64,000 bases of DNA, taken from positions 4,094,501-4,158,500 of the forward strand of contig OX359192.1 of the NCBI GenBank assembly GCA_947172415.1. The letters run 5' to 3'. This document shows, piece by piece, positions 3,650 to 64,000 of the stretch. The notes under the pieces were generated by a model, which saw nothing but the letters and a program-made list of their open reading frames with translations, searched no databases and was not told the origin of the DNA. Source of the stretch: Chondrosia reniformis (Eukaryota > Porifera > Demospongiae > Chondrillida > Chondrillidae). Position numbers and translations under genes: made by a program. Within the stretch, counting starts at the first letter, position 1; every line of letters begins with the position of its first letter.

Positions 3650-6600
3650 TTTCTTTTCAGGACCAAACCTGGTATTGAACCAGGGCATCCTCGTACGACG
3701 ATGTTATCCGTAACACCATCGGTCACGTGGGTTTCACCATGTATCTTGTAAATGAAGTCCTATTTATATACCACTCACTTTTGACTCTACATATATATGC
3801 AATATATCAGATTTATAATATGCATATGAGTTATATACAATATATATTACATATTAGATATATAATACATATATAAGTTGTTTTCTTTTTTCTTTTCAGG
3901 ACCAAACCTGGTATTGAACCAGGGCATCCTCGTACGACGATGTTATCTGTAACACCATCGGTCACGTGGGTTCCTAAATGTATCTTGTAAATGAAGTCCA
4001 ATTTATATACCACTCACTTTTGACTCTACATATGTATGCAATATATAAGATATATAACATGCATATAAGATATGTACAATATATATTACTTATAAGATAT
4101 ATAATACATATATAAGTTGTTGCCTTTTTTTCTTTTTTCTGGACCCAACCTGGTATTGAACTAGGGCATTCTCGTACCTTGTATCCAGACGATGTCATCC
4201 GTAACACCATCGGTCACGTGGGTCACCCAATATATGTTGTAAATGAAGTCCTATTTATATACCACACACATTTGACTCTACATATATATGCAATATATAT
4301 ATATAATATGCATATAAGATATATACAATATATGTTACATATAGGATATATAATACATATATATTATGTATGCTTTTTTTCTTTTTTCAGGACCCAATCT
4401 GGTATTGAACCAGGGCATCCTCGTACGACTATGTTATCCGTAACACCATCGGTCACGTGGGTTTCACCATGTATCTTGTAAATGAAGTCCTATTTATATA
4501 CCACACACTTTTGATTCTACATATATATGCAATATTTATATATATATATATATATATATTACATATAAGATATATAATACATATATATTAAGCATGGTTT
4601 TTTCTTTTTTCAGGACCCAACCTGGTATTGAACCAGGACATCCTCGTACCTTGTATCCAGACGATGTTATCTGTAACACCATTGGTCACGTGGGTTCCAC
4701 AATATATGTTGTAAATGAAGTCCTATTTATAAACCACTCACTTTTGACTCTACATATATATGCAATATATAAGATTTATAATATGCATATAAGATATATA
4801 CAATATATAATACATATAAGATATATAATACATAAATAATTTGTTTGCTTGTTTTCTTTTTTTCTTTTTTCAGAACCCTACCTGGTTTTGAACTAGGGCA
4901 TCCTCATACCTTGTATCCAGACGATGTCATCCGTAACACCATCGGTCAAGTGTGTCACCCAATTTATGTTGTAAATGAAGTCCTATTAATATACCAATCA
5001 CTTTTGACTCTACATATATATGCCATATATATATATATATATATAATATGCATATAAAGATATATACAATATATATTACATATAACATATATAATACATA
5101 TATAAGATGTATGCTCTTTTCTTTTTGGTTTTTCAAGATCCAACCTGGTATTGAACCAGGGCATCCTCATACCTTGTATCCAGACGATGTCATCCGTAAC
5201 ACCATTGGTCACCTGTGTCACCAATATATTTTGTAAATGAAGTCCTATTTATATACCACTCACTTTTGACTCTACATATATATGCAATACGTAAGATATG
5301 TAATATGCATGTAAGATATATACAATATATATTACATATAAGATATATATTACATATATAAGATGTGTGCTTTTTTTCTTTTTTCCTTTTTTCAGGACCC
5401 CACCTAGTATTTAACCAGGGCATCCTCGTACGATGATGTTATCCGTAACATCATCGGTCATGTGGGTTCCACAATGTATCTTGTAAATGAAGTCCTATTT
5501 ATATATCACTCACTTTTGACTCTACATATATATGCAATATATATGATATATAATATGAATATAAGATATATACAGCATATATTACATATAAGATATATAA
5601 TACCTATATAAGTTGTTTGCTTTTTTTTAGGACCCAACCTGGTAATGAACCAGGGCATCCTTGTACGACGATATTATCCGTAACACCATCGGTCACGTTG
5701 TTTCCAAAATGTATCTTGTAAAGAAAGTCCTATTTATAAACCAGTCACTTTTGACTCTACATATATATGCAATATATAAGATATATAATATGCATATAAG
5801 TTATATACAGCATATATTACATATAAGATATATAATATATATATAAGATTTATGCTTTTTTCTTTTTTTCTTTTTTTAGAACCCCACCCAGTATTGAACC
5901 AGGGAATCCTTGTACGATGATGTTATCCGTAACATCATTGGTCACGTGGGTTCCACAATGTATCTTGTAAATGAAGTCCTATTTATATACGACTCACTTT
6001 TGACTCCACATATATATGCAATATATAAAATATATAGTATGCATATAAGATATATACAATATATATTACATATAAGATATATAATACATATATATTATGC
6101 ATGCTTTTTTTCTTTTTTCATGGCCCAACCTGGTATTGCACCAGGACATCCTCGTACCTTGTATCCAGACGATGTTATCCGTAACACCATCGGTCACGTG
6201 GGTTCCACAATATATGTTTTAAATGAAGTCCTATTTATATACCACTCACTTTTGACTCTACATATATATGCAATATATATATATATAGAATATGCATATA
6301 AGATATATACAATATATATTACATATAAGAAGAATACTACATATATATTATGTATGTTTTTTTCTTTTTTCAGGACCCAACCTGGTATTGAACCAGGACA
6401 TCCTGGTACCTTGTATCCAGACAATGTTATACGTAACACCATCGGTCATGTGGGTCACCCAATATATGTTGTAAATGAATTCCTATTTATATACCACTCA
6501 CTATTGACTATACATATATATGCAATATATAAGATATATTATATTCATATAAGATATATTCAATATATTTTACATTGAAGATATATAATACATATATAGG

Positions 6601-9600
6601 TTGTGTGGTTTTTTCTTTTTTTCTTTTTTCAGGACGCAATCTGACATTGAATCAGGGCATCCTCATACCTTGTATCCAGATGATGTCATCCGTAACACCA
6701 TCGGTAACGTGGGTTCCACAATATACGTTGTAAAAAAGTCGTATTTTATACCACTCACTTTTGACTCTACATATATATGCAATATATAAGATTTATAATA
6801 TGCATATAGGATATATACAATATATAATAGATATAAGATATATAATACATAAATAAGTTGTTTGCTTGTTTTCTTTTTTTCTTTTTTCATAACCCTACCT
6901 GGTTTTGAACTAGGGCATCCTCGTACCTTGCATCCAGACTATGTCATCCGTAACACCATCGGTCACGTGGGTCACCCAATTTATGTTGTAAATGAAGTCC
7001 TATTAATATACCAATCACTTTTGACTCTACATATATATGCAATATATATATGTATATATAATATGCATATAAAGATATATACAATATATATTACATATAA
7101 GATATATAATACATATATAAGATGTGTGCTTTTTTCTTTTTTCCTTTTTTCAGGACCCCACCTAGTATTTAACCAGGGCATCCTCGTACGATGATGTTAT
7201 CCGTAACATCATCGGTCATGTGGGTTCCACAATATATCTTGTAAATGAAGTCCTATTTATATACCACTCACTTTTGACTCTACATATATATGCAATATAT
7301 AAGATATATAATATGAATATAAGATATATACAATATAAATTACATATAAGATATATAATACCTATATAAGTTGTTTGCTTTTTTTTAGGACCCAACCTGG
7401 TAATGAACCATGGCATCCTTGTACGACGATATTATCCGTAACACCATCGGTCACGTTGTTTCCAAAATGTATCTTGTAAATGAAGTCCTATTTATAAACC
7501 ACTCACTTTTGACTCTACATATATATGCATTATATAAAATATATAATATGCATATAAGATATATACAGCATATATTACATATAAGATATATAATACCTAT
7601 ATAAGTTGTTTGCTTTTTTTAGGACCCAACCTGGTAATGAACCAGGGCATCCTCGTACTACGATATTATCCGTAACACCATCGGTCCTGTGGGTTCCACA
7701 ATTTATCTTGTAAATGAAGTTATATGTATATACCACTCACTTTTGACTCTACATATATGTGCAATATATAAGATATATAAAATGCATATAAGATTTATAC
7801 AATATATATTACATATAAGATATATAATACATATATAAGTGGTTGGCTTTTTTCTTTTTTCAGGACCCAACCTGGTATTGAACCAGGTCTTCCTCGTACG
7901 ACGATGTTATCCGTAACACCATCAGTCACGTGGGTTCCACAATATATGTTGTAAATGAAGTCCTATTTATATACCACTCACTTTTGACTCTACATATATA
8001 TGCAATATATATATATATATAAAATGCATATAAGATATATACAATATATACTACATATAAGATATATAATACATATATATTATGCATGCTTTTTTTCTTT
8101 TTTCAGGACCAAACCTGGTATTGAACCAGGACATCATCGTTACTTCTATCCAGACGATGTTATCCGTAACACCATCGGTCACGTGGGTTCCACAATATAT
8201 GTTTTAAATGAAATCCTATTTATATACCACTCACTTTTGACTCTACATATATACAATATATAAGATATATAATATGTGTATAAGATATATAAAATATATA
8301 TTACATATAAGATATATAATACATATATAAGTTGTTTTCTGTTTTTTCTTTTTTGTTTTTTTAGGACCCAACCTGGTTTTGAACTAGGGCATCCTCGTAC
8401 CTTGTTTCCAGACGATGTCATTTGTAACACCATCGGTCACGTGGGTTTCACAATATATGTTGTAAATGAAGTCCTCTTTATATACCATTCACTTTTGACT
8501 CTACATTAGATATGTAATATATATATATATAATATGTATATAAGATATATACAGTATATATTACATATTGGATATATAATACATATATATTATGTAACCT
8601 TTTTTCTTTTTTCAGGACCCAACCTGGTATTGAACCAGGACATCCTCGTACCTTGTATCCAGACAATGTTATCCGTAACGCAATCGGTCACATGGGTTCC
8701 ACAATATATGTTGTAAATGAAGTCCTATTTATTTACCACTCACTTTTGACTGTACATATATATGCAATATATGTATATATATTATGCATATAAGATATAT
8801 ACAATATATATTACATATAAGATATATAATAAATGTATAAGATTTATGCTTTTTTTTCTTTATTCAGGACCCAACCTGGTTTTTAACCAGGGCATCCTCG
8901 TACGACGATGTTATCCGTAATATCATCGGTCATGTGAGTTCCACAATATATCTTGTAAATGAAGTCCTATTGATATACCACACACTTTTGACTCTATATA
9001 TATATGCAATATATATATATATATATAATATGCATATAAGATATATACAATATATATTACATATGGGATATATAATATATATATATTATGCATGCTTTAT
9101 TTTCTTTTTTCAGGACAAAACCTGGTATTGAACCAGGACATCCTCTTACCTTGTATCCAGACGATGTTATCCGTAACACCATTGGTCACGTGGGTTCCAC
9201 AATATATGCTGTAAATGAAGTCCTATTTATACACCACTCACTTTTGACTCTACATATATGTGCAATATATAAGATATATAAAATGCATATAAGATTTATA
9301 CAATATATATTACATATAAGATATATAATACTTATATAAGTGGTTGGCTTTTTTCTTTTTTCAGGACCCAACCTGGTATTGAACCAGGGCTTCCTCGTAC
9401 GACGATGTTATCCGTAACACTATCAGTCACGTGGGTTCCACAATATATGTTGTAAATGAAGTCCTATTTTTATACCACTCACTTTTGACTCTACATATAT
9501 ATGCAATATATATATATATATATAAAATGCATATAAGATATATACAATATATACTACATATAAGATATATAATACATATATATTATGCATGCTTTTTTCT

Positions 9601-10995
9601 TTTTTCAGGACCAAACCTGGTATTGAACCAGGACATCCTCGTTACTTCTATCCAGACGATGTTATCCGTAACACCATCGGTCACGTGGGTTCCACAATAT
9701 ATGTTTTAAATGAAAACCTATTTATATACCACTCAATGGTGACTGTACATACATATGGAATATATAAGATATATAATATGCATATAAGATATATAAAATA
9801 TTCATTACATATAAGATATATAATATATATATTAGATGGTGGCTTTTTTTCTTTTTCAGCACCCAACTTTGTATTTAACCCGGGCATCCTCGTACGACGA
9901 TGTTATTTGTAACACCATCGGTCACGTGGGTTCCACAATATATCTTGTAAACGAAGTCCTATTTATAAACCACTCACTTTTGACTCTACATATATACAAT
10001 ATATAAGATATATAATATGCGTATAAGATATATAAAATATATATTACATATAAGATATATAATACATATATAAGTTGTTTTCTTTTTTTTTTTTTTCAGG
10101 ACCCAACCTGGTGTTGAATCAGGGCATCCTCGTGCGACGATGTTATCCGTAACATCATCAGTCATGTGGGTTCAACAATATATCTTGTAAATAAAGTCCT
10201 ATTTATAAACCACTCGCTTTTTACTCTACATATATATGCAATATATAAGATATATAATATGCATATAAGATATATTCAATATATATTACATATAAGATAT
10301 ATAATACATATATAAGTTGTTGGCTTTTTTCTTTTTTCAGGACCCAAACTGGTATTGAACTAGGGCATCCTCGTACCTTGTATCCAGACAATGTCATCCG
10401 CAACACCATCGGTCACGTGGGTCACCCAATATATGTTGTAAATGAAGTCCAATTTATATACCACACACTTTTGACTCTATATATATATGCAATATATATA
10501 TATATTATGCATATAAGATATATACAATATATATTATATATAAGATATATAATACATATATATTATGCATGCTTTTTTTCTATTTTCAGGACCCTATCCG
10601 TTATTGAACCAGGACATTCTCGTACCTTGTTTCCAGACGATGTTATCCGTAATACCATCGGTCACGTGGGTTCCACAATATATGTTGTAACTGATGTCCT
10701 ATTTATATACCACTCGCTTTTGATTCTACATAAATATGCAATATATAAGATATATAATATGCATATAAGATATATACAATATATTTTACATATAAGATAT
10801 ATAATACATATATAAATTGTTGGCTTTTTCCTTTTTTCAGGACCCAACCTGGTATTGAACCAGGACATCCTCGTACCTTGTTTCCAGATGATGTTATCCG
10901 TGACACCATCGGTCACGTGGGTTCCACAATATCTGTTGTAAATGATGTCCTATATATATACCACTCACTTTTGACTCTACATATATATGCAATAT
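3650..10995 (-). repeat. Satellite array 1, segment 1 (tRNA-like ~250 bp monomer)
   Basis: About 30 tandem monomers. Each starts on the plus strand with a pyrimidine tract and CAGGACCC (for example near 3658, 3898, 4388, 4612), continues with CCTGGTATTGAACCAGG, CATCCTCGTAC, ATCCGTAACACCATCGG, CACGTGGG and GTCCTATTTATATACCACTC, and ends in a TA-rich block with GCATATAAGATATATAC. Read on the minus strand, the first half resembles a tRNA: T arm CCTGG-TTCAATA-CCAGG, acceptor strands GACCCAC and TTGGGTC (6 of 7 pairs in one subtype), and a D-arm/A-box-like TGACCGATGGTG. A long subtype has an extra CTTGTATCCA; the short subtype lacks it. I infer a SINE-derived satellite. The strand given is that of the tRNA-like part. 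Short ORFs through it are not genes. Confidence 0.9.
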
Positions 10996-12767
10996 CACTG
11001 TTAAAAATGCGGTGTGACGATCACACCAATTTACGCTCACACCAACGGTGTGATCGGTCACACCGCAGGTTTAGTGTGACGATCACACCGAACGGTCGCC
11101 ATTTCTACAGTTACGCAACCGTGCCCTGCCCTCTGCTCGTTGCGCAAACATTGCGAGCACGTATCCTAGGTAACGAGTTCTTTTTAGAGAATGGCTACCG
11201 ACTGAACGAGTGGACGGTTCAGGAATTGGTCGTTTGTGTCAGAGTACATACGGTTCTAGAGGCAAATAAAGACAACAAAGACAACAAAGGTACACTGCAT
11301 GTGTTACACACTATTTAAAGCCATTTCTCAGTTTTCGTTCTCGCGTAAGGTAAAACGGGGTAACTTAGAACAATATTTTGTTTTCCGTACCTTGTTTTCA
11401 GACAAATTTTGCAAACTTGGAACGCTGTTTTTAAAGATGTGTCGCTTCCCCCATGAGCCGCCAATAACCTGAATGGAAGGTTCGGCATGCAGGTAGCAAT
11501 TATAACTTGCTATGTAATTACTCGTATGTATTTTGGCGTTGTGTGAAGTCAAGCAAAACAGATTATTTTATTACTTTAAATCGTCGTAAAAGTTGCACCG
11601 AGCTTCTCAGGATGCCGAACGAGGAACAGTGAGTTGTAGGCAACTCAGTGACCATCGTAGAAGGAGGTTCATTGCAAGATATGGCATTATCACTGGTTTC
11701 GCGCCTGTTTCAGAATTTGATTTCGTTGTATTATCGCTAGCGTGTCACACTTAGCTATTAACTTAACTTAACAATGGTGAACACCAATGAATCTAAAGAT
11801 CATGAATAATAAAATAAGATGGTGAGAAAGTGAATACAACATAAAAGGTCAGAAGTTAACTTCAGCAATTTCCTGAAGTTTGACCAAGTAGCCCTGCAGG
11901 TAGTAGAGAATCAATACGTACATGCAGTTAAGCTACGCATTCGTGCATACACTGTCACTTGCAATACAGGATCCTGGCCAGGTATTCAGCATCCATGGCT
12001 TTCTCGAGATGTATCCATTCTTGACCAAGTATGATCAAGTATGTTCGAAAAACTGTATAATTTTAATTATATTCACACAACAGTTGGGTGTATGCACGTG
12101 TGCATATGTGTAATGTATATATACAACTTTACAAATGCAGATCCAGCAAGAGTTTGATCGTGTGGTTGCTGAACAGCATGCGACCTTCCTTTCAGTTAAA
12201 CTGCGTTGGCTAGAGTTACAGCCGCAGTTTCTAGAACTGGCTACATCTGAACAAAACAGGCAGCTAATTTCAATGTTGGACAGACCTCCTTTTTTGTCTT
12301 CAACATCAGCTACCCAATTGGCACTACGTCCCTTTTTCAGTTCCTAGAAACTGTGTTTTTGAAAGCCAAAGTACCAAAGAAGCCAAGGCTTCAAAAGTTT
12401 ATTGCCAGACTTGCTCTTTAATATTATTTTTGTATCATTCACTGTACTGCTTTTACTATGCTGTATCTATCCTTCACATGTGTTTCTTATGATGTGTGTC
12501 AGTCTACACTAAACTGCAATTCAGCTAGAGGCATGCATGCATGGAAAAGTCAATGCATGTGTATGTAAACTGCATGAGGTTGTGAGAATTTGAACTGGAA
12601 CCTGGATTTGTGGGAGATTATGTTCTGGTGAGGTTTACACTTTACAAAGAGTGATTCTCACACCATTATGCTAGGAGTGACTATCACACTGAAATCTGGT
12701 GTGAGCCCTGTAGCAATCAATTCACACCAATTTTTGGTGTGATCGTCACCCCACATTTTTAACAGTG
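10996..12767. mobile_element. CACTG-ended DNA transposon (EnSpm/CACTA-like), probably non-autonomous
   Basis: The element begins CACTGTTAAAAATG and ends with the inverted match CATTTTTAACAGTG; the inverted repeats run about 32 bp with few mismatches. It is flanked by TAT on both sides, a 3-bp target duplication. Subterminal regions are packed with GGTGTGA/TCACACC motifs in both orientations. CACTA/CACTG ends, 3-bp duplication and subterminal repeats are typical of the EnSpm/CACTA superfamily. No transposase is visible in its 1.77 kb. It sits in the AT-rich half of a monomer, directly beside the pogo-like MITE. Confidence 0.75.
11922..12347 (+). pseudogene. Possible two-exon gene fragment inside the CACTG element
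   Basis: An ORF from 11922 runs to a donor-like CAA|GTATGT near 12038-12046; an acceptor AAATGCAG at 12133-12140 opens a second frame to a stop at 12345-12347. Both junctions are phase 0, so splicing would give a protein fragment of about 110 residues. The second exon is rich in Gln, Leu and Glu (EFDRVVAEQHATF, LELQPQFLELATSEQ). I do not recognise the family; it may be a transposase remnant or captured exons. Confidence 0.35.
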
Positions 12768-19816: not shown

Positions 19817-20922
19817 TATATATAATATGCATAAAAGATATATACAATATATATTACATATAAGATATATAATATATATATAAGTTGTTTTCTTTTTTCT
19901 TTTTTCACAATCCAACCTGGTATTGAAACAGGGCATCCTCGTACGACGTTGTTATCCGTAACACCATCGGTCACGTGGGTTCCAAAATGTATCTTGTAAA
20001 TGAAGTCCTATTTATATACCACTCACTTTTGACTCTAAATATATATGCAATATATAAGATATATAATATGCTTATAAGATATATACAATATATCTTACAT
20101 ATAAGATATATAATACATATAATAGATTTATGCTTTTTTCTTTTTTCTTTTTTCAGGACCCCACCTGGTATTGAACCATGGTATCCTCGTACGACGATGT
20201 TATCCGTAACACCATCGGTCATGTGGGTTCCCCAATGTATCTTGGAAATGAAGTCCTATTTATATACCTCTCACTTTTGACTCTACATATATATGCAATA
20301 TATAAGATATATTGCATATAAGTTATATTCAATATATATTACATATAAATATATAATACATATATAAGTTGTTGGCTTATTTTCTTTTTTCAGGACCCAA
20401 CCTAATATTAAACTAGGGGATCCTCGTACCTTCTATCCAGACAATGTCATCCGTAACACCCTCGGTCACATGGGTCACCCAATATATGTTTTAAATGATG
20501 TCCTATTTATATACCACACACTTTTGACTCTACATATATATGCAATATATATATATATATAATATGCATATAAGATATATACAATATATATTACATATAA
20601 GATATATACAATATATATTACATATAAGATATATACAATATATATTACATATAAGATATATACAATATATATTACATATAAGATATATAATACATATAAT
20701 AGATTTATGCTTTTTCCTTTTTTTCTTTTTTCAGGACCCAACCTGGTATTGAACTAGGGCATCCTCGTACGACGATGTTATCCGTAACACCATCGGTCAC
20801 GTGGGTTCCACAATGTATCTTGTAAATTAAGTCCTATTTATATACCACTCACTTTTGACTGTACATATATATTCAATATATAAGATATATAATATGCATA
20901 TAAGATATATTCAATATATATA
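19817..20922 (-). repeat. Satellite array 1, segment 2
   Basis: About four monomers in the same orientation and phase as segment 1, continuing it after the nested insertions. Around 20570-20690 the AT-rich block is itself expanded: a ~30 bp unit ending ACAATATATATTACATATAA is repeated about four times. Confidence 0.88.
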
Positions 20923-21489
20923 CAGTGGGCTCTGGTTTATCCGGCCTCGATTTATCCGGAAACCTGTTTTATTCGACTGGAAGTGTGGGGAACCAAAAGT
21001 ATCGTGTACTATTGTATAGCAATTACCCTGGTTTATCCGGACCTCGTTTATCCGTATCCAACGTTAGTGCTTGTGCGACGAAAGGCCGTTGTCCCATATG
21101 TATTGCCTTTTTCTATCCGGCAAGGCTCGACATCGGGCGTACGAACTGCGATCTTCTTCGTGGAGCTACTGTCCTCTGCGCTGCGCCGTTTCTTGGACTC
21201 TCGAAGGATGTCGCTAATAGTGGTTACGCTCAGCTGGAGGAAGCGCTGTGGGTTTTGTTCGGAAACATCCGCTCCAGACGCCTAGCGATTTCGGACGAAA
21301 TGTTTCGGGTAAATCGAAGGAATTTGGGGAGACTATGTGGATCAGTGGACTGTTTACTGCATGTAATACTGTACTTTCTATTAATATCCATGCCACTATA
21401 CAAATAGAAGATACTTTTTTTATCTGACATCTGATTTATCCGACAAGTTTTGAGGGAACAGATGATGTCGGATAAATCAGAGCCCACTG
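20923..21489. mobile_element. Tigger-like MITE with CAGTGGGCTCTG ends
   Basis: Left end CAGTGGGCTCTGGTTTATCC; right end is its inverted form GGATAAATCAGAGCCCACTG. TA is duplicated on both sides (20921-20922 and 21490-21491). Internal TTTATCCGG motifs repeat near the left end. At 567 bp it has no convincing transposase; a 160-codon frame in it is not supported. It sits at the exact junction of the satellite and the next transposon. Confidence 0.85.
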
Positions 21490-25511: not shown

Positions 25512-26416
25512 TATATTACATAAAAAATATATAATATATATATAAGTTGTTGGCTTATTTTCCTTTTTCAGGACCCAACCTGGTATTAAACAAGGGCATC
25601 CTCGTACCTTCTATCCAGACAATGTCATCCATAACACCTTCGGTCACGTGGGTCACCCAATATATGTTGTAAATGATGTCCTATTTATATACCACACATT
25701 TTTGACTCTACATATATATGCAATATATATATATATATATATAATATGCATATAAGATATATACAATATATATTACATATAAGATATATAACACATATAT
25801 ATTATGCATGCTTTTTTCCTATTTTCAGGACCCTACCTGGTATTGAACCAGGACATCCTCGTACCTTGTTTCCAGACGATGTTATCCGTAACACCATCGG
25901 TCACGTGGGTCACCCAATAAATGGTGTAAATGAAGTCCTATTTAGATACCACACACTTTTGACTCTACATATATATGCAATATATATATATATATTATAG
26001 GCATATAAGATATATACAATATATATTACATATATATTATGCATGCTTTTCTCCTTTTTTCAGGACCAACCTGGTATTGAACTAGGGCATCCTCGTACGA
26101 CGATGTTATCCGTAACACCATCGGTCACGTGGGTTCCACAATGTATCTTGTAAATGAAGTCCTATTTATATACCACTCACTTTTGACTCTACATATATAT
26201 GCAATATATAAGATATATAATATGCATATAAGATATATATAATATATATTACATATAAGATATACAATACATATATATTATGCATGCTTTTTTCCCATTT
26301 TCAGGACCCTACCTGGTATTGAACCAGGACATCCTCGTACCTTGTTTCCAGATGATGTTATCCGTAATACCATTGAACACGTGGGTTCCACAATATATGT
26401 TGTAAATGATGGCCTA
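25512..26416 (-). repeat. Satellite array 1, segment 3
   Basis: About four monomers, same orientation, mostly the long subtype. It ends inside a GTCCTATTTATATACC segment where the next transposon inserted (TA target). Confidence 0.88.
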
Positions 26417-27690
26417 CACAGGTGCCATATGACTGATCTGCGTGTTTTTACTTTTTTTATAAACACTTTTAAAAGCAAGTTTCGTTCTAATAGAAACGAT
26501 TTGCTAACTTAAACTGGTATACATCGAAGCGCTTATTTAAATGTCAGCGAAATCAAAAATTTGAGCGAGATTGAACAACCAATATCGAAGATATAACGTG
26601 TTAAAAGGGCCAATTTTAAAACTCTCAAACACTATGCGCTTAGTCTAGGAAAAAGCTAGAACTACGTTCTATACTTTATTGGAAAAGTTACAATGTATTC
26701 TAACAAAATTAAGAAGTCCCTTTCGATTCGCCCATCCGTTGAGAAGAAAACTGTGAAAATACACTTTTAATAGATTAGTAAATGCTATTTAATCTTTCAT
26801 ATCTTGGGAAATAAAGCTCAGACGCAAACCGACTTCTTAATTCTTACTATCACTAATGGATTCAGTGAGTGTCATCTCACTGAATCCATTTAAGCTGACT
26901 ACGCGACTATGAGGATCTTCTAAGTTAAGCGCATAGGCAATTTTCCTTCACTTCTGCAACAGACGCCATTTCTTAACATTTAAATCATATTCATTAGCAA
27001 ATAAGTTTATTCATGGGATGATTTACACATTTGAAACGCAAACGGTTAAATTTTATAGCCGGATGTTAATATTGCGCAAATCCTAAGTTGTGTAACTGGT
27101 ATACATGTATGTATGTATGTTGACGCAAGTGATCGAGGATCGCCGTAAGGTGTTATTCACACTAAGGATCACCAATTTTCGAATTTTCGTCTACAACAGA
27201 GAATATTATGCCCCCCAAAAAGGCAAGAGGGATATCAGTCGATAATCAGATTGCTCTGAAGTTCAACTGTGGCTTTGCAAGAGTTGCTGCATACGAATTA
27301 TTCGTTAAGAAAAGGTACGTAAAAAGTAAGTATTCCACGTTAGCTAGAGAAGTGAATAATTTTATAGCTTTACATTAATTGTATAATACAATACGTACGA
27401 AGTGAGACGATTAAATAAAACATTAATAGGATACGAAGTGAGACGATTATAAAGACAATGATACGAAGCGAGATGATTATATACGATATGTAAATCAATT
27501 AAGCCACAGGATGCTATAACCAATTTAACAATGGACGATTTTAAATTCCTTCCGGTGTGTAACCGATAACACTAAATGACACATTCACTCTTAACGATTG
27601 AAAATGAAAATTCTTTATTAATTATCGCTTGTTACGTGTTGATCGCTATAAGGCAGTCTATCCCTAAGGAACAGTCATAAGGTACCAGTG
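26417..27690 (+). mobile_element. 1.27 kb deletion derivative of the 47711-54612 transposon
   Basis: Ends CACAGGTGCCATATGACTG and inverted CATAAGGTACCAGTG, flanked by TA on both sides; removal restores CCTATTTATATACC. Reverse-complement comparison shows about 1.1 kb matching 53430-54612 and about 145 bp matching 47711-47855, so the whole middle of the parent is missing. The junction is near 27540. It keeps the first transposase exon and three subterminal ATACGAAGTGAGACGAT repeats (27393-27477). Confidence 0.85.
27208..27314 (+). pseudogene. Orphan first exon of the large transposase
   Basis: ATG at 27208 opens MPPKKARGISVDNQIALKF and continues to AAAAG|GTACGT at 27314/27315. Same phase (2) and nearly the same sequence as exon 1 of the parent at 53724-53818. 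The downstream exons are deleted. The N-terminal basic residues are in frame here, whereas a length change in the parent puts the equivalent upstream ATG out of frame. Confidence 0.7.
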
Positions 27691-29461: not shown

Positions 29462-30137
29462 TAAGATATATAATACATATATAAGTTGTTTTCTTTTTTC
29501 TTTATTCAGGACCCAATCTGGTATTGAACCAGGGCATCCTCGTACGACAATGTTATCCGTAACACCATCGGTCACGTGGGTTCCACCATGTATCTTGTAA
29601 ATAAAGTCCAATTTATATACCACTCACTTTAGACTCTACATTTATATGCAATATATAACATATATAATATGCATATAAGATATATACAATATATATTACA
29701 TGTAAGTTATATAATACATATAATGGATGTATGCTTTTTTCTTTTTTCAGGACCCCACTTGGTATTGAACCATGGTATCCTCGTACGACGATGTAAACCG
29801 TAACACCATCGGTCACGTGGGTTCCACAATGTATCTTCTAAATGAAGTCCAATTTATATGCAACTCACGTTTGACTCTACATATATATGCAATATATAAG
29901 ATATATAAAATGCATATAAGATATATACAAAATATATTCCATATAATATATATAATAAATATATAAGTTGTTGGCTTTTTTCTTTTTTCAGGACCCAACC
30001 TGGTATTGAACCAGGGCATTCTCGTACACCGATGTTATCAGTAACACCATCGTCACGTGGGTTCCACAATATATGTTGTAAATGAAGTCCTATTTATATA
30101 CCACTCACTTTTGACTCTACATATATATGCAATATAT
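29462..30137 (-). repeat. Satellite array 1, segment 5
   Basis: Nearly three monomers, same orientation. It breaks off at GCAATATAT, resuming after the foldback insertion with AAGATATATAATATGC at 31086. Confidence 0.88.
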
Positions 30138-32893: not shown

Positions 32894-32930
<37 letters not shown>

Positions 32931-41744: not shown

Positions 41745-41926
41745 TACACACATGTCTATTACTTGCATACGTACATAATACATATTGTATATACTACAGT
41801 ATATTTACTGCAAAGGGGAGTTTATTGTACTTAAGCCTCTGCTAGGCAATCATTGCAAACAATAAACATCACTGGTTTCCACAAATAGGACTTCGGTCCC
41901 CCAGCCAAGTAGACGATTGTCACTTA
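41745..41926. other. Unassigned spacer between array 1 and helicase remnant
   Basis: AT-rich, no ORF or structure that I can support. Confidence 0.5.
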
Positions 41927-45296: not shown

Positions 45297-45960
45297 GTCA
45301 TTTTTCAGGACCCAACCTGGTATCGAACTAGGGCATCCTCGTACCTTGTATCCAGACAATGTAATCCGTAACACCATCGGTCACGTGGGTCACCTAATAT
45401 ATGTTGTAAAGGAAGTCCTATTTATATACCACACACTTTTGACTCTACATATATATGCAATATATATATATATAATATGCATATAAGATATATACAATAT
45501 ATATTACATATAAGATATATAATACATATATAAGTTGTTTTCTTCTTTTCTTTTTTCAAGACCCAACCTGGTATTGAACCAGGGCATCCTTGTACGACGA
45601 TGTTATCCGTAACACCATCGGCCACGTGGGTTCCACAATGTATCTTGTAAATGAAGTCCTATTTATATACCACTCACTTTTGACTCTACATATATATGCA
45701 ATATATAAGATATATAATATGAATATAAGATATATACAATATATTTTACATATAAGATATATAATACATATATAAATTGTTGGCTTTTTTCTTTTTTCAG
45801 GACTCTACCTGGTATTGAACCAGGACATCCTCGTACCTTGTATCCAGACGATGTTATCCGTGACACCATCGGTCACGTGGGTTCCACAATATATGTTGTA
45901 AATGATGTCCTATTTATATACCACTCACTTTTGACTCTACATATATATGCAATATATATA
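45297..45960 (-). repeat. Satellite array 2, segment 1
   Basis: Nearly three monomers, same orientation as array 1, ending in GCAATATATATA where the MITE inserted. Confidence 0.88.
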
Positions 45961-46814
45961 CAGTGAAACCTCCGAATAACGGACACGCTCGGACCCACCA
46001 TTTTATCCTTTATTCAGAGGTTGTCCTCTTCTCGGAGGTCGGCCCATAACCACCCTCTAAACAACTAATTGTGTAAAAGCAACTAGCTACCAGTTATATA
46101 TGTCATGCGCAAAGTACGGATTCGGACAATCCACGGATTGGCCTGCGCAAAGCGTTAATCCACACTATATTACGGCTCATGATCAAGATCCAAGAGATGC
46201 AATAAATACACACCAACAAGTTATAGGAAGCTACAAACACTAACATTTTACTAACATAACGGTTTACTAACTTAAAGGTTATGCTGGGCACAATCCTCAG
46301 AAGCAGGACTTCCTATTAGATGGTTTGGTACGAGTGGTTTTAGGACAGTTAAAATGAACAACTACCAAATGTATAAATCATTCGCTTAGACCAATCAGGT
46401 TTAAGGTCACTTTTATCGACCTTTGAATAGTTGAAAAGTAGGAGCGCAATGAGCTAGCGGGCAGAACCGAAATTCCCTTGAGACTACTGTACGTACGATC
46501 CGCTGGACATCTGTAGCTATTTTATGTAGCTAGATACTTATGACTTACGTTAATTTTGTTCACTGTACTATTATCGTTTTATCGTATTAGTTTCGTCTCG
46601 TCTTTAGTTTAACTGTCTGCTTTCGGTGGTTAGTATATATTGTCAGAGATCAGTCTGAGGCTTGGTTAGTGTCTGTTGTCCGGAGTTCGGAGGTGCCGCC
46701 ACTCGGAGGTTCGAAATGTCCTAGTTCTATGGCAAAGTCAATCGGGGGCGTAAGATTTGTCCGCTGTACAGAGGTTGTCCGCTTTTTGGAGAGTCCGCTA
46801 ATAGAGATTTACTG
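45961..46814. mobile_element. pogo/Tigger-like MITE copy 2 (uninterrupted)
   Basis: CAGTGAAACCTCCGAATAAC at the left, AATAGAGATTTACTG at the right, TA on both sides. 854 bp, nearly identical to copy 1 and in the same orientation at the same monomer position, and carrying the empty site for the Penelope insertion near 46081. Confidence 0.85.
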
Positions 46815-47710
46815 TATATATAATATGCATATAAGATATATACAATATATATTACATATAAGATATATAATGCATATATAAGTTTTTTTTTTTTCACAAC
46901 CCAACCTGGTATTGAACCAGGACATCCTCGTACGACGATGTTATCCGTAACACCATCGGTCACGTGGGTTCCACAATGTATCTTGTAAATGAAGTCCAAT
47001 TTATATACCACTCACTTTTGTCTCTACATATATATGCAATATATATATATATATAATATGCATATAGGATATATACAATATATATTACATATAAGATATA
47101 TAATACATATAATTGATGTATGCTTTTTTCTTTTTTTTTTCAGGGCCCCACCTGGTATTGAACTATGGTATCCTCGTACGACGATGTTATCCGTAACACC
47201 ATCGGTCACATGGGTTCCACAATGTATCTTGTAAATGAAGTCCTATTTATATACCACTCACTTTTGACTCTACATATATATGCAATATATAAGATATATA
47301 ATATGCATATAAGATATATTCATATATCTTACATATAAGATATATAATACATATATAAGTTGTTGGCTTATTTTCTTTTTCAGGACCCAATCTGGTATTG
47401 AACCAGGGAATCCTCGTACGACGATGTTATCCATAACACCATCGGTCACGTGGGTTCCACCATGTATCCTGTAAATGTAGTCCAATTTATATACCACTCA
47501 CTTTAGACTCTACATTTATATGCAATATATAAGATATATAATATGCATATAAGATATATAATTCATATAATAGATGTATGCTTTTTTCTTTTTTCTTTTT
47601 CAGGACCCCACCTGGTATTGAACCATGGTATCCTCAAACGATGATGTTATCCGTAACACCATCGGTCAAGTGGGTTCCACAATGTATCTTGTAAATGAAG
47701 TCCAATTTAT
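46815..47710 (-). repeat. Satellite array 2, segment 2
   Basis: About four monomers, short subtype dominant. It ends in AATTTAT, continued at 54613 by ATATACC after the next insertion. Confidence 0.88.
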
Positions 47711-47925
47711 CACTGGTACCTTATGACTGTTCCTTAGGGATAGGCTGCCTTATAGCGATCAACACGTAACAAGCGCTAATTAATAAAGAATTTTCGTTTT
47801 CAATCGTTAAGAGTGAATGCGTTATTTAGTGTTATCGTTTACACACCGGAAGAAATCAAAACCGTAACCCAGCGTTACCAGGTATTCAATCTCAAACACT
47901 TGCACGTGGTGTGTGACCAATTGAA

Positions 47926-54612: not shown

Positions 54613-54868
54613 ATATACCACTCGCTTTAGACTCTACATTTATATGCAATATATAAGATATATAATATGCATATAAGATATATAATTCATATAATAGATG
54701 TATGCTTTTTTCTTTTTTCTTTTTCAGGACCCCACCTGGTATTGAACCATGGTATCCTCAAACGATGATGTTATCCGTAACACCATCGGTCAAGTGGGTT
54801 CCACAATGTATCTTGTAAATGAAGTCCAATTTTTATACCACTCACTTTTGACTCTACATATATTTGCA

Positions 54869-54899
<31 letters not shown>

Positions 54900-57800
54900 G
54901 CATATAAGATATATACAATATATATTACATATAAGATATATAATACATATATATTATGTATGCTTTTTTTCTTTTTCAGGACCCAACCTGGTATTGAACT
55001 AGGGCATCCTCGTACCTTCTATCCAGACGATGTCATCCGTAACACCTTCGGTCACGTGGGTCACCCAATATATGTTGTAAATGAAGTCCTATTTATATAC
55101 CTCACACTTTTGTCTCTACATATATATGCAATATATATATATATAATATGCATATAAGATATATACAATATATATTACATATAAGATATATAAAACATAT
55201 ATATTATGCATCCTTTTTTTCCTATTTTCAGGACCCTACTTGGTATTGAACCAGGACATCCTTGTACCTTGTTCCAGACGATGTTATCCGTAACACCATC
55301 GGTCACGTGGGTTCCACAATGTATCTTGTAAATGTAGTCCAATTTATATACCACTCGCTTTAGACTCTACATTTATATGCAATATATAAGATATATAATA
55401 TGCATATAAGATATATAATTCATATAATAGATGTATGCTTTTTTCTTTTTTCTTTTTCAGGACCCCACCTGGTATTGAACCATGGTATCCTCAAACGATG
55501 ATGTTATCCGTAACACCATCGGTCAAGTGGGTTCCACAATGTATCTTGTAAATGAAGTCCAATTTTTATACCACTCACTTTTGACTCTACATATATTTGG
55601 AATATATATATATATCATATGCATATAAGATATATACAATATATATTACATATAAGATATATAAAATGTATATATTATGCATGCTTTTTTCCTATTTTCA
55701 GGACCCTACATGGTATTGAACCAGGACATCCTTGTACCTTGTTTCCAGACGATGTTATCCGTAACACCATCGGTCACGTGGGTTCCACAATGTATCTTGT
55801 AAATGAAGTCCTATTTATATACCACTCACTTATGACTCTACATATATATGTAATATATATATATATAATATGAATGTAAGATATACACAATATATATTAC
55901 ATATATGATATATAAAACATATATAAGATGTTTTCTTTTTTTCTTTTTTCAGTACCCAATCTGGTATTGAACCAGGGAATCCTCGTACAACAATGTTATC
56001 CGTAACACCATCGGTCAAGTGGGTTCCACAATGTATCTTGTAAATGAAGGCCAATTTATATACCACTCACTTTTAACTCTACATATATATGCAATATATA
56101 AGATATATAATATGCATATAAGATATATACAATATATATTACATATAAGATATAAAATACATTGAATAGATGTATGCTTTTTTCTTTTTTCTTTTTTCAG
56201 GACCCTACCTGGTATTGAACTATGGTATCCTTGTACGACGATGTTCTCCGTAACACCATCGGTCACGTGCGTTCCACAATGTATCTTGTAAATGAAGTCC
56301 AATTTATATACCACTCACTTTTGACTCTACATATATATGCAATATATAAGATATATATTATGCATATAAGAGATATTCATATATATTACATATAAGATAT
56401 ATAATACATATATAAGTTGTTGACTTATTTTCTTTTTTCAGGACCCAATCTGGTATTGAAACGGGGAATCCTCGTACGACGATGTTATCCGTAACACCAT
56501 CGGTCACGTGGGTCCCACCATGTACCTTGTAAATGTAGTCCAATTTATATACCACTCACTTAAACTCTACATTTATATGCAATATATAAGATATATAATA
56601 TGCATATAAGATATATAATTCATATAATAGATGTATGCTTTTTTTTTCTTTTTTCAGGACCCACCTGGTATTGAACCATGGTATCCTCGAACGACGATGT
56701 TATCCGTAACACCATCGTTCAAGTGGGTTCCACAATGTATCTTGTAAATGAAGTCCAATTTATATACCAATCACTTTTGACTCTACATATATATGCAATA
56801 TATATATAAATATATTATATGCATATAAGATATATACAATATATATATATTACATATAAGATATATAATACATTTATATTATGCATGCTTTTTTCTTTCT
56901 TCAGGATCCAACCTAGTATTGAACTAGGGCATCCTCGTACCTTCTATCCAGACGATGTCATCCGTAACACCTTCGGTCAAGTGGGTCACCCAATATATGA
57001 TGTAAATGAAGTCCTATTTATATACCTCACACTTTTGTCTCTACATATATATGCAATATATATATATATATAATATGCATATAACATATATACAATATAT
57101 ATTACATATAAGATATATAATACATATATAAGATGTAAGCTTTTTTTTCTTTTTTCAGCACACAACCTGGTATTGAACCAGGGCATCCTCGTACGACGAT
57201 GTTATCCGTAACATCATCGGTCACGTGGGTTCCACAATATATCTTGTAAATGAAGTCCTATTTATAAACCACTCACTTTTGACTCTACATATATACAATT
57301 TATAAGATAAATAATATGCATAAAAGATATATAAAATATATATTATATATAAGATATATAATACATATATAAGTTGTTTGCTTTTCTTTTTTCAGGACCC
57401 AACCTGGTTTTTAACTAGGGCATCCTTGTAACTTGTTTCCAGGCGATGTCATCCGTAACACCATCGGTCACGTGGGTTTCACAATATATGTTGTAAATGA
57501 AGTCCTCTTTATATACCACTCACTTTTGACTCTACATATATATGCAATATATATATATATATATAATAGGTATATAAGATGTATATAATATATATTATGC
57601 ATGTTTTTTTCTTTTTTCAGGACCCAACCTGGTATTGAACCAGGACATCCTCGTACCTTGTATCCAGACCATGTTATCCGTAACACCATCAGTCACGTGG
57701 GTTCCACAATATATGTTGTAAATGAAGTCCTCTTTATATACCACTCACTTTTAACTCTACATATTTATGCAACATATAAGATTTAAAATATTCATATAAG

Positions 57801-60375
57801 TTATATACAGTATATATTACATATAAGATATATAATACATATATAAGTTTTTCTCTTTTTTCTTTTTTTCCTTTTTCATGACCCAATCTTTTATTGAACT
57901 AGGGCATCCTCGTACCTTGTATCCAGACGATGTCATCCGAAACACCATCGGTCACGTGGGTCACCCAATATATGTTGTAAATGATGTCCTATTTATATAC
58001 CACTTACTTTTGACTCTACATATATATGCAAGATATATATATATATAATATGCATATAAGATATATACAATATATATTACATATAATATATATTATAAGT
58101 GTATAAGATATATGCTTTTTTTTCTTTATTCCGGACCCAACCTTTTATTGAACCAGGGCATACTCGTACCTTGTATCCAGACCATGTCATCGTTAACACC
58201 ATCGGTCACCTGGGTCCCCCAATATATGTTGTAAATGAAGTCCTATTTATATACCACTCACTTTTGACTCTATATATATATGCAATATATATATATATAT
58301 ATTTATATAATATGCATATAAGATATATACAATATATATTACATATAAGATATATAATACATATATAAGATGTGTGCTTTTTTCGTTTTTTCTTTTTTCA
58401 GGACCCAACCTGGTATTGAACCTAGGCATACTCGTACGACGATGTTATCCGTAACATCATCGATCATGTGGGTTCCACAATATATCTTGTAAATGAAGTC
58501 CTATTTATATACCACTCACTTTTGACTCTACATATATATGCAATATATAAGATTTAAAATATTCATATAAGTTATATACAGTATATATTACATATAAGAT
58601 ATATAATACATATATAAGTTTTTCTCTTTTTTCTTTTTTTCTTTTTTCATGACCCAATCTTTTATTGAACTAGGGCATCCTCGTACCTTGTATCCAGACG
58701 ATGTCATCCGAAACACCATCGGTCACGTGGGTCACCCAATATATGTTGTAAATGATGTCCTATTTATATACCACTCACTTTTGACTCTACATATATATGC
58801 AGGATATATATATATATAATATGCATATAAGATATATACAATATATATTACATATAAGATATATAATAAGTGTATAAGATATATGCTTTTTTTTCTTTAT
58901 TCAGGACCCAACCTTTTATTGAACCAGGGCATCCTCTTAGCTTGTATCCAGACCATGTCATCCGTAACCCCATCGGTCACCTGGGTCCCCCAATATATGT
59001 TGTAAATGAAGTCCTATTTATATACCACTCGCTTTTGACTCTACATATATATGCAATATATATATATATATATAATAGGTATATAAGATGTATACAATAT
59101 ATATTATGCATGTTGTTTCTTTTTTCAGGACCCAACCTGGTATTGAACCAGGACATCCTCGTTCCTTGCATCCAGACCATGTTATCCGTAACACCATCGG
59201 TCACGTGGGTTCCACAATATATGTTGTAAATGAAGTCCTCTTTATATACCACTCACTTTTAACTCTACATATTTATGCAATATATAAGATTTAAAATATT
59301 CATATAAGTTATATACAGTATATATTACATATAAGATATATAATACATATATAAGTTTTTCTCTTTTTTCTTTTTTTCTTTTTTCATGACCCAACCTTTT
59401 ATTGAACTAGGGCATCCTTGTACCTTGTATCCAGACGATGTCATCCGAAACACCATCGGTCACGTGGGTCACCCAATATATGTTGTAAATGATGTCCTAT
59501 TTATATACCACTCACTTTTGACTCTACATATATATGCAAGATATATATATATATATAATATGCATATAAGATATATACAATATATATTACATATAAGATA
59601 TATTATAAGTGTATAAGATATATGCTTTTTTATCTTTATTCAGGACCCAACCTTTTATTGAACCAGGGCATACTCGTACCTTGTATCCAGACCATGTCAT
59701 CGTTAACACCATCGGTCACCTGGGTCCCCCAATATATGTTGTAAATGAAGTCCTATTTATATACCACTCACTTTTGACTCTATATATATATGCAATATAT
59801 ATATATACATTTATATAATATGCATATAAGATATATACAATATATATTACATATTAGATATATAATACATATATAAGATGTGTGCTTTTTTCGTTTTTTC
59901 TTTTTTCAGGACCCAACCTGGTATTGAACCTAGGCATACTCGTACGACGATGTTATCCGTAACATCATCGATCATGTGGGTTCCACAATATATCTTGTAA
60001 ATGAAGTCCTATTTATATACCACTCACTTTTGACTCTACATATATATGCAATATATAAGATTTATAATATGCATATAAGTGATATACAATATATATTACC
60101 TATAAGATGTATAATACGTATGTAAGTTGTTTTCTTTTTTTCTTTTTTTCTTTTTTCAGGACCCAACCTGGTATTGAACTAGGGCATCCTCGTACCTTGT
60201 ATCCAGACGATGTCATCCGAAACACCATCGGTCACGTGGGTCACCCAATATATGTTGTAAATGAAGTCCTATTCATATACCACTCTCTTTTGACTCTACA
60301 TATATAAGCAATATATATATATATATATAAAAGGCATATAAGATATATACAGTATATATTACATATCAATATTTG
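54613..60375 (-). repeat. Satellite array 2, segment 3
   Basis: About 24 monomers, same orientation. It ends in the AT-rich half at about 60375, where a reverse transcriptase remnant begins. Confidence 0.9.
57600..60000 (-). repeat. Three-monomer higher-order repeat, about three copies
   Basis: The segment with AAGTTTTTCTCTTTTTTC and CTTTTATTGAACTAGGG recurs at about 57845, 58615 and 59353 (spacing ~770 and ~740), each followed by the same two further monomer types. Confidence 0.75.
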
Positions 60376-60378
60376 TCA

Positions 60379-60843
60379 ATTAAGGATATTTACCCCTAAG
60401 AACTTATTCTTAAAAAGACAAATACCAGCCCTAAAAAATCCCCCTTTTTAGACTTAGATATAACCATTACTAAGAATCAATTTATCACTAAAGTATATGA
60501 TTAGCGAGAGGACTTGAACTTTGATATAGTAAACTTCCCCCATTTTGATAGTAATATTCCTAATACCCCAGCCTATGGCGTCTTTATTTCACAACTTATT
60601 AGGTATTCCAGAATATGTAGTGACTTCTCCAGTTTTCAGGCTAAAAGTTTGCAGTTATGCAATAGGCTTATTAAGCAGGGTTACAAATACTTTAAGCTAA
60701 AATCAACCTTTAAAACCTTCCTATCCCGGCAGCCTCTAGTTAGAATCAAGTATAAGCAGAAAGTAGCTAGTATGCTTACGGGCTGTCTTGTGTTACCCCT
60801 TATTGTGTTACCCCACCTCCAAAGAAATGTTATACACTACTAG
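60379..60843 (+). pseudogene. C-terminal fragment of a retroelement reverse transcriptase ORF
   Basis: Translated from about 60390: IFTPKNLFLKR, FLDLDITITKNQFITKVYD, an in-frame TAG at 60502-60504, then REDLNFDIVNFPHFDSNIP, YGVFISQLIRYSRICSDF and KSTFKTFL. This FLDLDI ... DFNF-IVNFP ... SNIP ... YGVYISQLIRYAR arrangement is common at the end of retroelement RT proteins in invertebrates; I do not assign the class. The catalytic RT core is absent. Broken by truncation and the stop. Confidence 0.65.
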
Positions 60844-61379: not shown

Positions 61380-61429
61380 TATATTGTTTTCATTTGCCGA
61401 TTACGTTGTACGGCTTCATGTTACGGAAA

Positions 61430-61786: not shown

Positions 61787-64000
61787 TTTTCTTTCTTCAG
61801 GACCCAACCTGCTATTGAACCAGGGCATCCTCGCACCTTGTATCCAGACAATGTTATCCGTAACACTATCGGTCACATGGGTTCCACAATATATGTTGTA
61901 AATGAAGTCCTATTTATAATCCAAACACTTTTGACTCTACATATATATGCAATATATATATATATATATATAAATATAATATGCATATAAGATATATACA
62001 ATATATATTATATATAAGATATATAAAATATATATTACATAAAAGATAGAGAATACCTATATAAGTTTTTTGCTTTTTTTCAGGACCCAACTTCGTATTG
62101 AACTAGGGCATCCTCGTACCATGTATCCAGACAATGTTATCCGTAACACTATCGGTCACATGGGTTCCACAATATATGTTGTAAATGAAGTCCTATTTAT
62201 ATACCACTCACTTTTGACTGTACATATATATTCCATATATAAGATATATAATATGCATATAAGATATATACAATATATATTACATATAAGATATATAATA
62301 CATATATATTATGCATGCTTTATTTTCTTTTTTCAGGACCCAACCTGGTATTGAACCAGGACATCCTCGTACCTTGTATCCAGACCATGTTATCCGTAAC
62401 ACCATCGGTCAAGTGGATTCCACAATATATGTTGTAAATGAAGTCCTATTCATATACCACTCACTTTTGACTCTACATATATATACAATATATAAGATTT
62501 ATAATATGCATATAAGATATATGCAATATATATTACATATAAGATATATAATACATATATGTTGTTTTCCTTTTTCTTTTTTCTTTTTTCAGGACCCAAT
62601 CTGGTATTGAACTAGGGCATCCTCGTACCTTATATCCAGACGATGTTATCCGTAACACCATCGGTCACGTGGGTTCCACAATATATGTTGTAAATGAAGT
62701 CCTATTCATATACCACTCACTTTTGACTCTACGTATATATGCAATATATAAGATTTATAATATGCATATAAGTTATATGCAATATATATTACATATAAGA
62801 TATATAATACTCATATAAGTTGTTTTCTTTTTTTCTTTTTTTCTATTTTCAGGACCCAACCTGGTATTTAATCAGGGCATCCTCGTAGGACGATGTTATC
62901 CGTAACATCATTGGGCATGTGGGTTCAACAATATATCTTGTAAATGAAGTCCTATTTATATACCACTCACTTTTAACTCTACATATATATGCAATATATA
63001 TATATATAATATGCATATAAGATATATACAATATATATTACATATAAGATATATAATAAATGTATGATATATGCTTTTTTTCTTTTTTTCTTTATTCAGG
63101 ACCTAACCTTTTTTTGAACCAGGGCATCCTCTTACCTTGTATCCAGACGATGTCATCCGTAACACCATCGGTCACCTGGGTCCCCCAATATATGTTGTAA
63201 ATGAAGTCCTATTTATATACCTCTCACTTTTGACCCTACATATATATGTGATATATATATATATATAATATGCATAAAAGATATATACAATATATATTAC
63301 ATATAAGATATATAATATGTATATATTATGCATGCTTTATTTTCTTTTTTCAGGACACAACCTGGTATTGAACCAGGACATCCTCGCACCTTGTATCCAG
63401 ATGATGTCTTCCGTAAGCCCATCGGTCACGTGGGTTCCACAATATATGTTGTAATTGAAGTCCTCTTTATATACCACTCACTTTTGACTCTACACATATA
63501 TGCAATATATAAGATATATTAATATGCATATAAGATATATACAATATATATTACATATAAGATATATAATACATATATACGTTGTTTTCTTTTTTCTTTT
63601 TTCAGGACACAACCTGGTATTGTACTAGGGCATCCTCGTACCTTGTATCCAGACGATGTCATCCGTAACACCATCGGTCACGTGGGTCACACAATATATG
63701 TTGTAAATGAAGTCCTATTTATATATCACTCACTTTTGACTCTACATATATATGCAATATATAAGATATATTAATATGCATATAAGATATATACAATATA
63801 TATTACATATAAGATATATAATACATATATGATGTATGCTTTTTTCTTTTTTTAGTACCCAACCTGGTATTGAACCAGGACATCCTCGTACCTTGTATCC
63901 AGACCATGTTATCCGTAACACCATCGGTTACGTGGGTTCCTCAACAAATGTAGTAAATGAAGTTCTATTTATATACCACTCACTTTTGACTCTACATATA
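61787..64000 (-). repeat. Satellite array 3 (continues beyond window)
   Basis: About nine monomers, same orientation; still in the satellite at the right edge. Confidence 0.9.

What the first reader, a model, noticed from the sequence alone, without database searches (positions are those of the whole stretch)
3650..64000. A ~30 kb satellite whose monomer looks like a tRNA-derived SINE with a composite promoter on the minus strand
On the minus strand of each monomer: T arm CCTGG-TTCAATA-CCAGG (B-box fit GGTTCAATACC), directly followed by TTGGGTC. Upstream is GACCCAC, pairing 6 of 7 with it in the subtype with GGGTCACCC, then a D-arm-like GACC...GGAT with an A14/GG-containing loop and A-box-like TGACCGATGG. 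In the short subtype the cloverleaf is about 73 nt with A-to-B spacing of about 44, as in real tRNAs. TATATAAATA lies about 37 nt upstream. The anticodon arm is replaced by CATC/GATG with a 10-nt loop. About 120 copies all point the same way. Tandem satellites born from SINEs are rare.
Basis: partly seen in the sequence, partly recalled or inferred. Interest (0 to 1): 0.75.

Follow-up and report, generated by a model that had tools for sequence, protein, structure and literature searches.

The report
Sponge mid-chromosome satellite with tRNA-like segment
This is a tandem repeat seen in one zone near the middle of 11 of the 14 chromosomes of the kidney sponge, so it is a good candidate for centromere-region DNA; it carries a worn tRNA-like stretch, but it does not look like a former jumping SINE.

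Summary
The repeat is real. The window (sponge Chondrosia reniformis, chromosome 4, 46% along it) holds 119 near-full monomers of about 252 bp, all on one strand, in 11 islands of about 30 kb in total, with other sequence, largely transposon-like, between them. The tRNA-like segment is real but weak. A covariance model from this sponge's own tRNAs finds it on the claimed strand at up to 20-21 bits (E about 0.001; median copy about 9 bits), against 57.6 bits for a tRNA left out of the model and at most 11.8 bits elsewhere in the DNA searched. ARAGORN and Rfam do not call it. B box fair, A box poor, no TTTT terminator, almost no compensatory changes. The TATA spacing is truly tRNA-gene-like here: tRNA genes of this sponge carry TATA near -34 (31 of 55). 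The SINE reading fails its key test: no dispersed copy was found, and 183 of 183 places in three complete pattern listings lie mid-chromosome. Best reading: a (peri)centromeric satellite library whose unit contains a decayed tRNA-gene-like segment. It was not found on chromosomes 1, 9 and 12.

The parts
3658..11088 (+). satellite island 1, 30 monomers
19906..20982 (+). satellite island 2, 4 monomers
25569..26427 (+). satellite island 3, 3 near-full monomers and a partial one (end taken from the partial hit)
29507..30239 (+). satellite island 4, 3 monomers
31179..34934 (+). satellite islands 5 and 6, 8 and 6 near-full monomers with a degenerate monomer between
35120..41767 (+). satellite island 7, 26 monomers, with near-identical multi-monomer duplications (for example monomers at 37177/37963/38749)
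45306..46048 (+). satellite island 8, 3 monomers
46895..47851 (+). satellite island 9, 4 monomers
54725..60407 (+). satellite island 10, 23 monomers
61798..64000 (+). satellite island 11, 9 monomers; the array runs on past the window (36 further hits in the next 10 kb, L093)
6373..6447 (-). tRNA-like segment of one monomer, as matched by the tRNA model (17.7 bits)
6381..6397 (-). T-arm-like hairpin with B-box core GGTTCAATACC in the same monomer
6450..6456 (-).
6484..6493 (-).

Best explanation
It is a mid-chromosome, probably (peri)centromeric, satellite DNA family of the sponge Chondrosia reniformis. The unit is about 252 bp: an AT-rich half, a T-rich tract, and a half with more G+C that holds, on the minus strand, a decayed tRNA-gene-like segment with its upstream TATA region. 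Shown: tandem arrays in one zone per chromosome on 11 of 14 chromosomes, subfamilies A, B and C with a chromosome bias, local multi-monomer duplication, and interruption by other sequence. Inferred: the unit began as a tRNA gene or pseudogene with its 5' flank that was duplicated in tandem; it spread by unequal exchange and transfer between equivalent zones of different chromosomes, not by retrotransposition; it now serves as heterochromatin or kinetochore-region DNA, and the tRNA-like part is more likely a relic than a working Pol III gene.
For: All 183 places in three complete listings lie at relative positions of about 0.28-0.57 of chromosomes 2-8, 10, 11, 13, 14 (lengths). Partial listings agree (first 100 of 876, of 168, of 107 and of 1553), as do the DNA searches. 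Subfamilies B and C. Duplications: 18 of 5565 monomer pairs at 0.97 identity or more. tRNA ancestry: 80 of 85 tRNA-model matches at E up to 10 in the window are on the satellite's minus strand; A-plus-B box score reached by 1, 5 and 20 of 300 shuffles for A, B, C; TATA at the tRNA-gene spacing.
Against: No copy was found on chromosomes 1, 9 and 12. No CENP-A, FISH or Hi-C evidence was at hand. The tRNA model gives the median monomer only about 9 bits, far below the Rfam gathering score of 29. A box poor. The TATA match weighs little because 48% of 25-nt windows of the unit hold a TATA-like string, and it is about 9 bases off in the model's own register. No parent tRNA stands out. The longest island in the window has 30 monomers, small for a centromere core.
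Confidence: 0.6

Rival explanations
1. One reading: the unit is a tRNA-derived SINE that became tandem, with an internal A/B-box promoter and an upstream TATA.
For: tRNA-like segment on one strand; an A-rich tract follows it on the minus strand (GAAAAAAGAAAAAAA); such satellites are known in squamates and a limpet.
Against: No dispersed copies in any listing (complete; others partial). The TATA region, upstream of the would-be RNA, is part of the unit and its best conserved zone. Exact TATA-zone 19-mers outnumber exact T arms (1553 against 876), so there is no room for many head-only copies.
Confidence: 0.12
2. The tRNA-likeness is a coincidence of an inverted-repeat-rich unit; it is simply a mid-chromosome satellite of unknown origin.
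For: Low scores; no compensatory pattern; the lowest-energy fold is two hairpins and not a cloverleaf; Rfam and ARAGORN silent; B and C lack the better A box.
Against: Model E of about 0.001 in 64 kb for the best copies, all on one strand and at one place in the unit; global alignment of the long form to 54 tRNA sequences beats 200 of 200 shuffles, its reverse strand only 138 of 200.
Confidence: 0.3
3. The plus strand is (or was) an exon: a T-rich acceptor CAG followed by an open frame (RTQPGIEPGHPRTLYPDDVIRKIIGHVG...), so the satellite descends from a gene.
For: CAG at the core start in 96 of 119 copies, 95% pyrimidines in the 14 bases before it; frame open in the A, B and C consensuses; consensus differences in codons 1-21 are synonymous except one D/E site.
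Against: Within families the synonymous share equals the neutral expectation (A 668 of 2504, 0.27; B 22 of 89; C 38 of 129; expected 0.25-0.29). Over all 40 codons the consensus differences are mixed (A-B 3 synonymous, 5 not; A-C 5 and 7; B-C 5 and 4). No Pfam match for two forms of the peptide. PGIEPG is also what an antisense T arm spells.
Confidence: 0.06

Closest known systems
SINE-derived satellites (sSats) of squamate reptiles (PMC10702118; abstract and Discussion read)
   Same: Tandem repeat family with a possible tRNA-related origin, tending to gather in particular chromosome regions.
   Different: Those derive from SINE families that are present dispersed in the same genomes and prefer subtelomeric regions; here no dispersed relative was found and the arrays are mid-chromosome.
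PcH-sat of the limpet Patella caerulea (PMC11121367; passages read)
   Same: AT-rich marine invertebrate satellite, pericentromeric on a subset of chromosomes (5 of 9 pairs), linked by its authors to a SINE.
   Different: 179-bp unit matching a 3' part of Nin-SINE without A and B boxes; here the resemblance is to the tRNA-like head and the TATA flank, with no SINE found.
Centromeric satellites in general (established knowledge, recalled)
   Same: AT-rich unit of one to two nucleosomes' length, chromosome-biased subfamilies, local multi-monomer duplication, transposon-like sequence among the arrays.
   Different: Short islands here, not found on 3 of 14 chromosomes, centromere proteins not tested.
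tRNA genes of the same sponge
   Same: B-box-like core, TATA spacing in one register, minus-strand match to the tRNA model.
   Different: No TTTT terminator (59 of 60 tRNA loci have one within 25 nt), poor A box, scores of about 20 bits against 43.6-74.4 for the 63 Rfam tRNA matches of this genome (other model).

Membership tests
satellite DNA | long head-to-tail arrays of related units | tested here: met
   119 near-full monomers in 11 islands, mean identity 0.81
tRNA-derived SINE | tRNA-related head with A and B boxes | tested here: inconclusive
   model up to 20-21 bits; B box 9.9-12.9 against 11.3-18.1 in 22 tRNAs; A box -0.9 to 4.8 against 8.9-16.6
tRNA-derived SINE | dispersed copies in the genome | tested here: not met
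   183 of 183 places in complete listings mid-chromosome; exact patterns would miss decayed copies
tRNA-derived SINE | target-site duplications | not testable with these tools
   no isolated copy found to examine
tRNA-derived SINE | A-rich or LINE-like 3' tail | tested here: inconclusive
   A-rich tract follows on the minus strand; LINE tails not compared
tRNA gene | recognised by tRNA finders above their cut-off | tested here: not met
   ARAGORN 0 genes; Rfam 0 at gathering, no tRNA at E<=10 in 3600-10990
tRNA gene | TTTT terminator just downstream | tested here: not met
   none in the A, B, C minus consensuses; TTTT within 60 nt in 14 of 119 copies
tRNA gene | TATA at about -34, as in this genome's tRNA genes | tested here: inconclusive
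type 3 (snRNA-like) promoter | proximal element shared with U1/U6 genes | tested here: not met
   best match 11 of 18, reverse strand 10, U6 itself 11; no shuffle control made
centromeric satellite | one zone per chromosome | tested here: met
   11 chromosomes, relative positions 0.27-0.58; zones are up to about 1.2 Mb wide
centromeric satellite | present on every chromosome | tested here: not met
   not found on chromosomes 1, 9, 12 in any listing; assembly gaps or diverged units not excluded
centromeric satellite | bound by cenH3/CENP-A | not testable with these tools
   no chromatin data

The most novel reading that the evidence does not exclude
The satellite is a tandemly multiplied tRNA-gene promoter: thousands of TATA plus B-box units that bind TFIIIC/TFIIIB without making a tRNA, and so mark or insulate the centromere region of an early-branching animal.
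Probability: 0.1. Interest if true: 0.8.

Novelty: new member of a known kind. Interest (0 to 1): 0.5.

Why it matters
I saw no described centromere-region satellite of a sponge in three searches of the paper library (listings, and passages of one paper). This family gives concrete probes for 11 of 14 chromosomes. If confirmed, it would show what centromere-region DNA looks like in an early-branching animal, and give a case of a satellite that may descend from a tRNA gene with its own promoter and not from a SINE. It also brought out that tRNA genes of this sponge carry a positioned upstream TATA box.

Tried and rejected
Tried and rejected. ARAGORN and Rfam on the window and Rfam at E up to 10 on 3600-10990 only: no tRNA; the 13 weak matches are microRNA families on AT-rich stretches and RAGATH-25, taken as chance. 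Alignment to 54 unique tRNA sequences, repeated tRNA-like family included: long form beats 200 of 200 shuffles globally and 196 locally, short form 176 and 199; best partners Arg, Val and Phe, no clear parent. Exon idea: codon statistics and Pfam, not supported. snRNA-type promoter: U6 and U1 compared, nothing convincing. Ribozymes: none in Rfam. A CACGTG motif like yeast CDEI (recalled) was set aside as too short. Copy number: scaling the 119 monomers by exact T arms (37 of 876 in the window) or TATA-zone 19-mers (41 of 1553) gives roughly 2,800 to 4,500 in the genome.

Limits. The genome search lists at most 100 places of a pattern, so searches are partial; 50, 54 and 63 are complete. Exact patterns miss decayed copies. 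In one search one of the two control tRNAs (L031, 85.0 bits) was in the model; the other (L054, 57.6) was not. One search used 337 copies that passed length filters (303 A, 10 B, 24 C). The 'short' counts per locus use a loose cut-off; I use only the exact-length classes. The spans typed into one search were set before one search was read; a few one search places on chromosomes 4, 6 and 14 lie up to about 10 kb outside them. The 60 tRNA loci are the 63 matches less 3 mitochondrial ones; one search scored only the best candidates. My first notebook entry calls the two Penelope-like ORFs identical; the proteins are, the DNA differs at 1 of 2349 bases. The wording on T-arm conservation, compensatory changes and the median model score was mended; the confidences are set afresh here.

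Full report
What genome it is. The window lies at 4,094,501-4,158,500 of contig C4 in an assembly of 117,379,552 bases in 15 contigs. Contig lengths (for example C7 8,459,200 and C13 6,903,244) and the 17,451-base contig C15 match the table and figure legend of the Chondrosia reniformis genome note (PMC12181767; outline, section 7 and a term search read). The window is at 46% of chromosome 4 of a sponge.

The observation. A profile search with the core of the unit finds 124 hits in the window, all on the plus strand, 119 near full length. They form 11 islands of 3 to 30 monomers with a summed length of about 29.9 kb, so '~30 kb' is right although only about half of 3650-64000 is satellite. The 106 complete monomers (those with a neighbour at 200-300 bp) range from 216 to 283 bp, with a 252-bp consensus. 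Mean pairwise identity is 0.81; 18 of 5565 pairs reach 0.97, 16 of them within an island at offsets of 3, 4, 6, 7 or 10 monomers, which shows local multi-monomer duplication.

Is the segment tRNA-like? ARAGORN and Rfam say no. A model built from 22 tRNA sequences of this genome says weakly yes: of 85 matches at E up to 10 in the window, 80 fall on the satellite's minus strand, 23 of them at E up to 0.01, the best at 20.0 bits and E 0.00091; the other five reach at most 7.3 bits. The median of the 119 monomers is only about 9 bits. In nine genome stretches and two tRNA loci, the tRNAs score 85.0 (in the model) and 57.6 (not in it), the best satellite copy 21.0, the best non-satellite stretch 11.8. 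Box scores agree: an A-plus-B score as good arises in 1 of 300 shuffles for family A, 5 for B and 20 for C; the B box (9.9, 12.9, 9.9) is near the low end of 22 real ones (11.3-18.1), the A box (4.8, -0.9, -0.9) is below all of them (8.9-16.6).

What speaks against a preserved RNA. T stem 0.89 and acceptor-like strands 0.91 are no better conserved than the unit as a whole (0.90) and worse than positions 101-160, the TATA zone and beyond (0.96); the T loop, that is the B-box core, is 0.97. Across 106 monomers the T stem holds only two cells with a change on both sides that keeps a pair, one at each of two pairs; pair 14-24 is Watson-Crick in 62 of 106 and mostly broken by one-sided changes. The lowest-energy fold is not a cloverleaf, although the minus strand folds better than its shuffles (z -3.4 short form, -2.5 long form; plus strand -1.1). 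The minus-strand consensuses have no TTTT, whereas 59 of 60 tRNA loci of this genome have one within 25 nt downstream.

Subfamilies show which features may be old. L094 (chromosome 2, 5.40 Mb; subfamily B) and L100 (chromosome 3, 2.55 Mb; subfamily C) carry related but distinct units. The short form on which the 73-nt cloverleaf rests is seen in none of 27 classifiable B and C copies, and the GG of the D loop in none of 34. B has the more canonical core GGTTCGATACC. The tree of the subfamilies was not rooted, so which state is ancestral is inference; the simplest reading is that the short form is a deletion within A.

The TATA box. Upstream of tRNA genes of this genome a TATA-like hexamer starts between -40 and -26 in 31 of 55 loci, against 0 and 1 of 55 in two control stretches of the same size (5 loci of a repeated tRNA-like family set aside from 60). 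This is a point for a tRNA gene with its 5' flank, and against a SINE, as ancestor. Its weight is limited: 48% of 25-nt windows of the unit hold a TATA-like string, and it is about 9 bases off in the model's register. A snRNA-type element was not found.

Where the family lies. Three patterns with complete listings gave 66, 28 and 89 places. All 183 lie in mid-chromosome zones of chromosomes 2, 3, 4, 5, 6, 7, 8, 10, 11, 13 and 14; none lies on 1, 9 or 12. The partial listings agree (first 100 of 876, of 168, of 107, of 1553), as do the DNA searches. Over all listings the zones span relative positions of about 0.27 to 0.58 and up to about 1.2 Mb. In one search one place, C2:5,358,719, stands 46 kb from its nearest neighbour, still inside the zone. 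So there is no sign of a dispersed SINE population, within the limits of exact patterns. B-type T arms sit on chromosomes 2, 5, 8, 11 and 13, the 42 C-type matches all on chromosome 3, which shows a chromosome bias.

How it most likely works. One mid-chromosome zone per chromosome, AT-rich units of about 250 bp, chromosome-biased subfamilies, local duplication and transposon-like neighbours are what one expects of centromere-region satellite DNA (established knowledge, recalled). The step from location to centromere function is inference: cenH3 data are lacking and three chromosomes show no copy. Origin from a tRNA gene or pseudogene with its flank is also inference, at about 0.6 in my judgement. 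That the tRNA-like part works today as a promoter is possible but not supported.

Comparison with known kinds. SINE-derived satellites are known in squamates (PMC10702118; abstract and Discussion read) and a SINE-linked pericentromeric satellite in a limpet (PMC11121367; passages read). There the claims rest on known SINE relatives; that test fails here. I saw no report of a sponge centromere satellite (searches, listings only; passages of PMC10232365 estimate centromeres in unicellular relatives).

Scores. As a candidate centromere-region satellite of a sponge it is interesting (0.5), but a new member of a known kind. The SINE reading should be dropped unless related species supply a dispersed element.

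Noticed in passing
tRNA loci L031-L060 and L062-L091: tRNA genes of this sponge carry a positioned upstream TATA box: 31 of 55 loci have a TATA-like start in -40..-26, against 0 and 1 in two control stretches.
   Followed up: partly
L103-L109 (upstream of U1 genes): All seven U1 matches share a block beginning AACCACAA about 55-60 bases upstream, a likely proximal sequence element.
   Followed up: no
window 13390-15738 (-) and 16283-18631 (+): Two Penelope-like ORFs of 782 aa (weak RVT_1 and GIY-YIG matches, below Pfam cut-offs) in inverted orientation, with identical proteins and 1 difference in 2349 bases.
   Followed up: partly
window 3-2729 (+) and 41984-44017 (+): Helitron-type ORFs: the first has PIF1 helicase and OTU matches; the second resembles its later part by eye and seems shortened at its start. 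Both lie near satellite islands.
   Followed up: no
window 3588-3649: A perfect 14-bp inverted repeat (3588-3601 and 3636-3649) directly before the T tract of the first monomer, as if a Helitron-like element ended in that tract.
   Followed up: no
L077, L083, L084, L086, L087: A repeated tRNA-like family (CTTCTTAGCTC... with an unexpected Cys/Arg anticodon call) with partly shared upstream sequence; a possible true tRNA-derived repeat of this genome.
   Followed up: no
window 22701-24026 (-), 49874-51358 (-), 51325-53136 (-): Further long ORFs among the arrays: the first has weak helix-turn-helix matches, the other two no Pfam match above cut-off.
   Followed up: no
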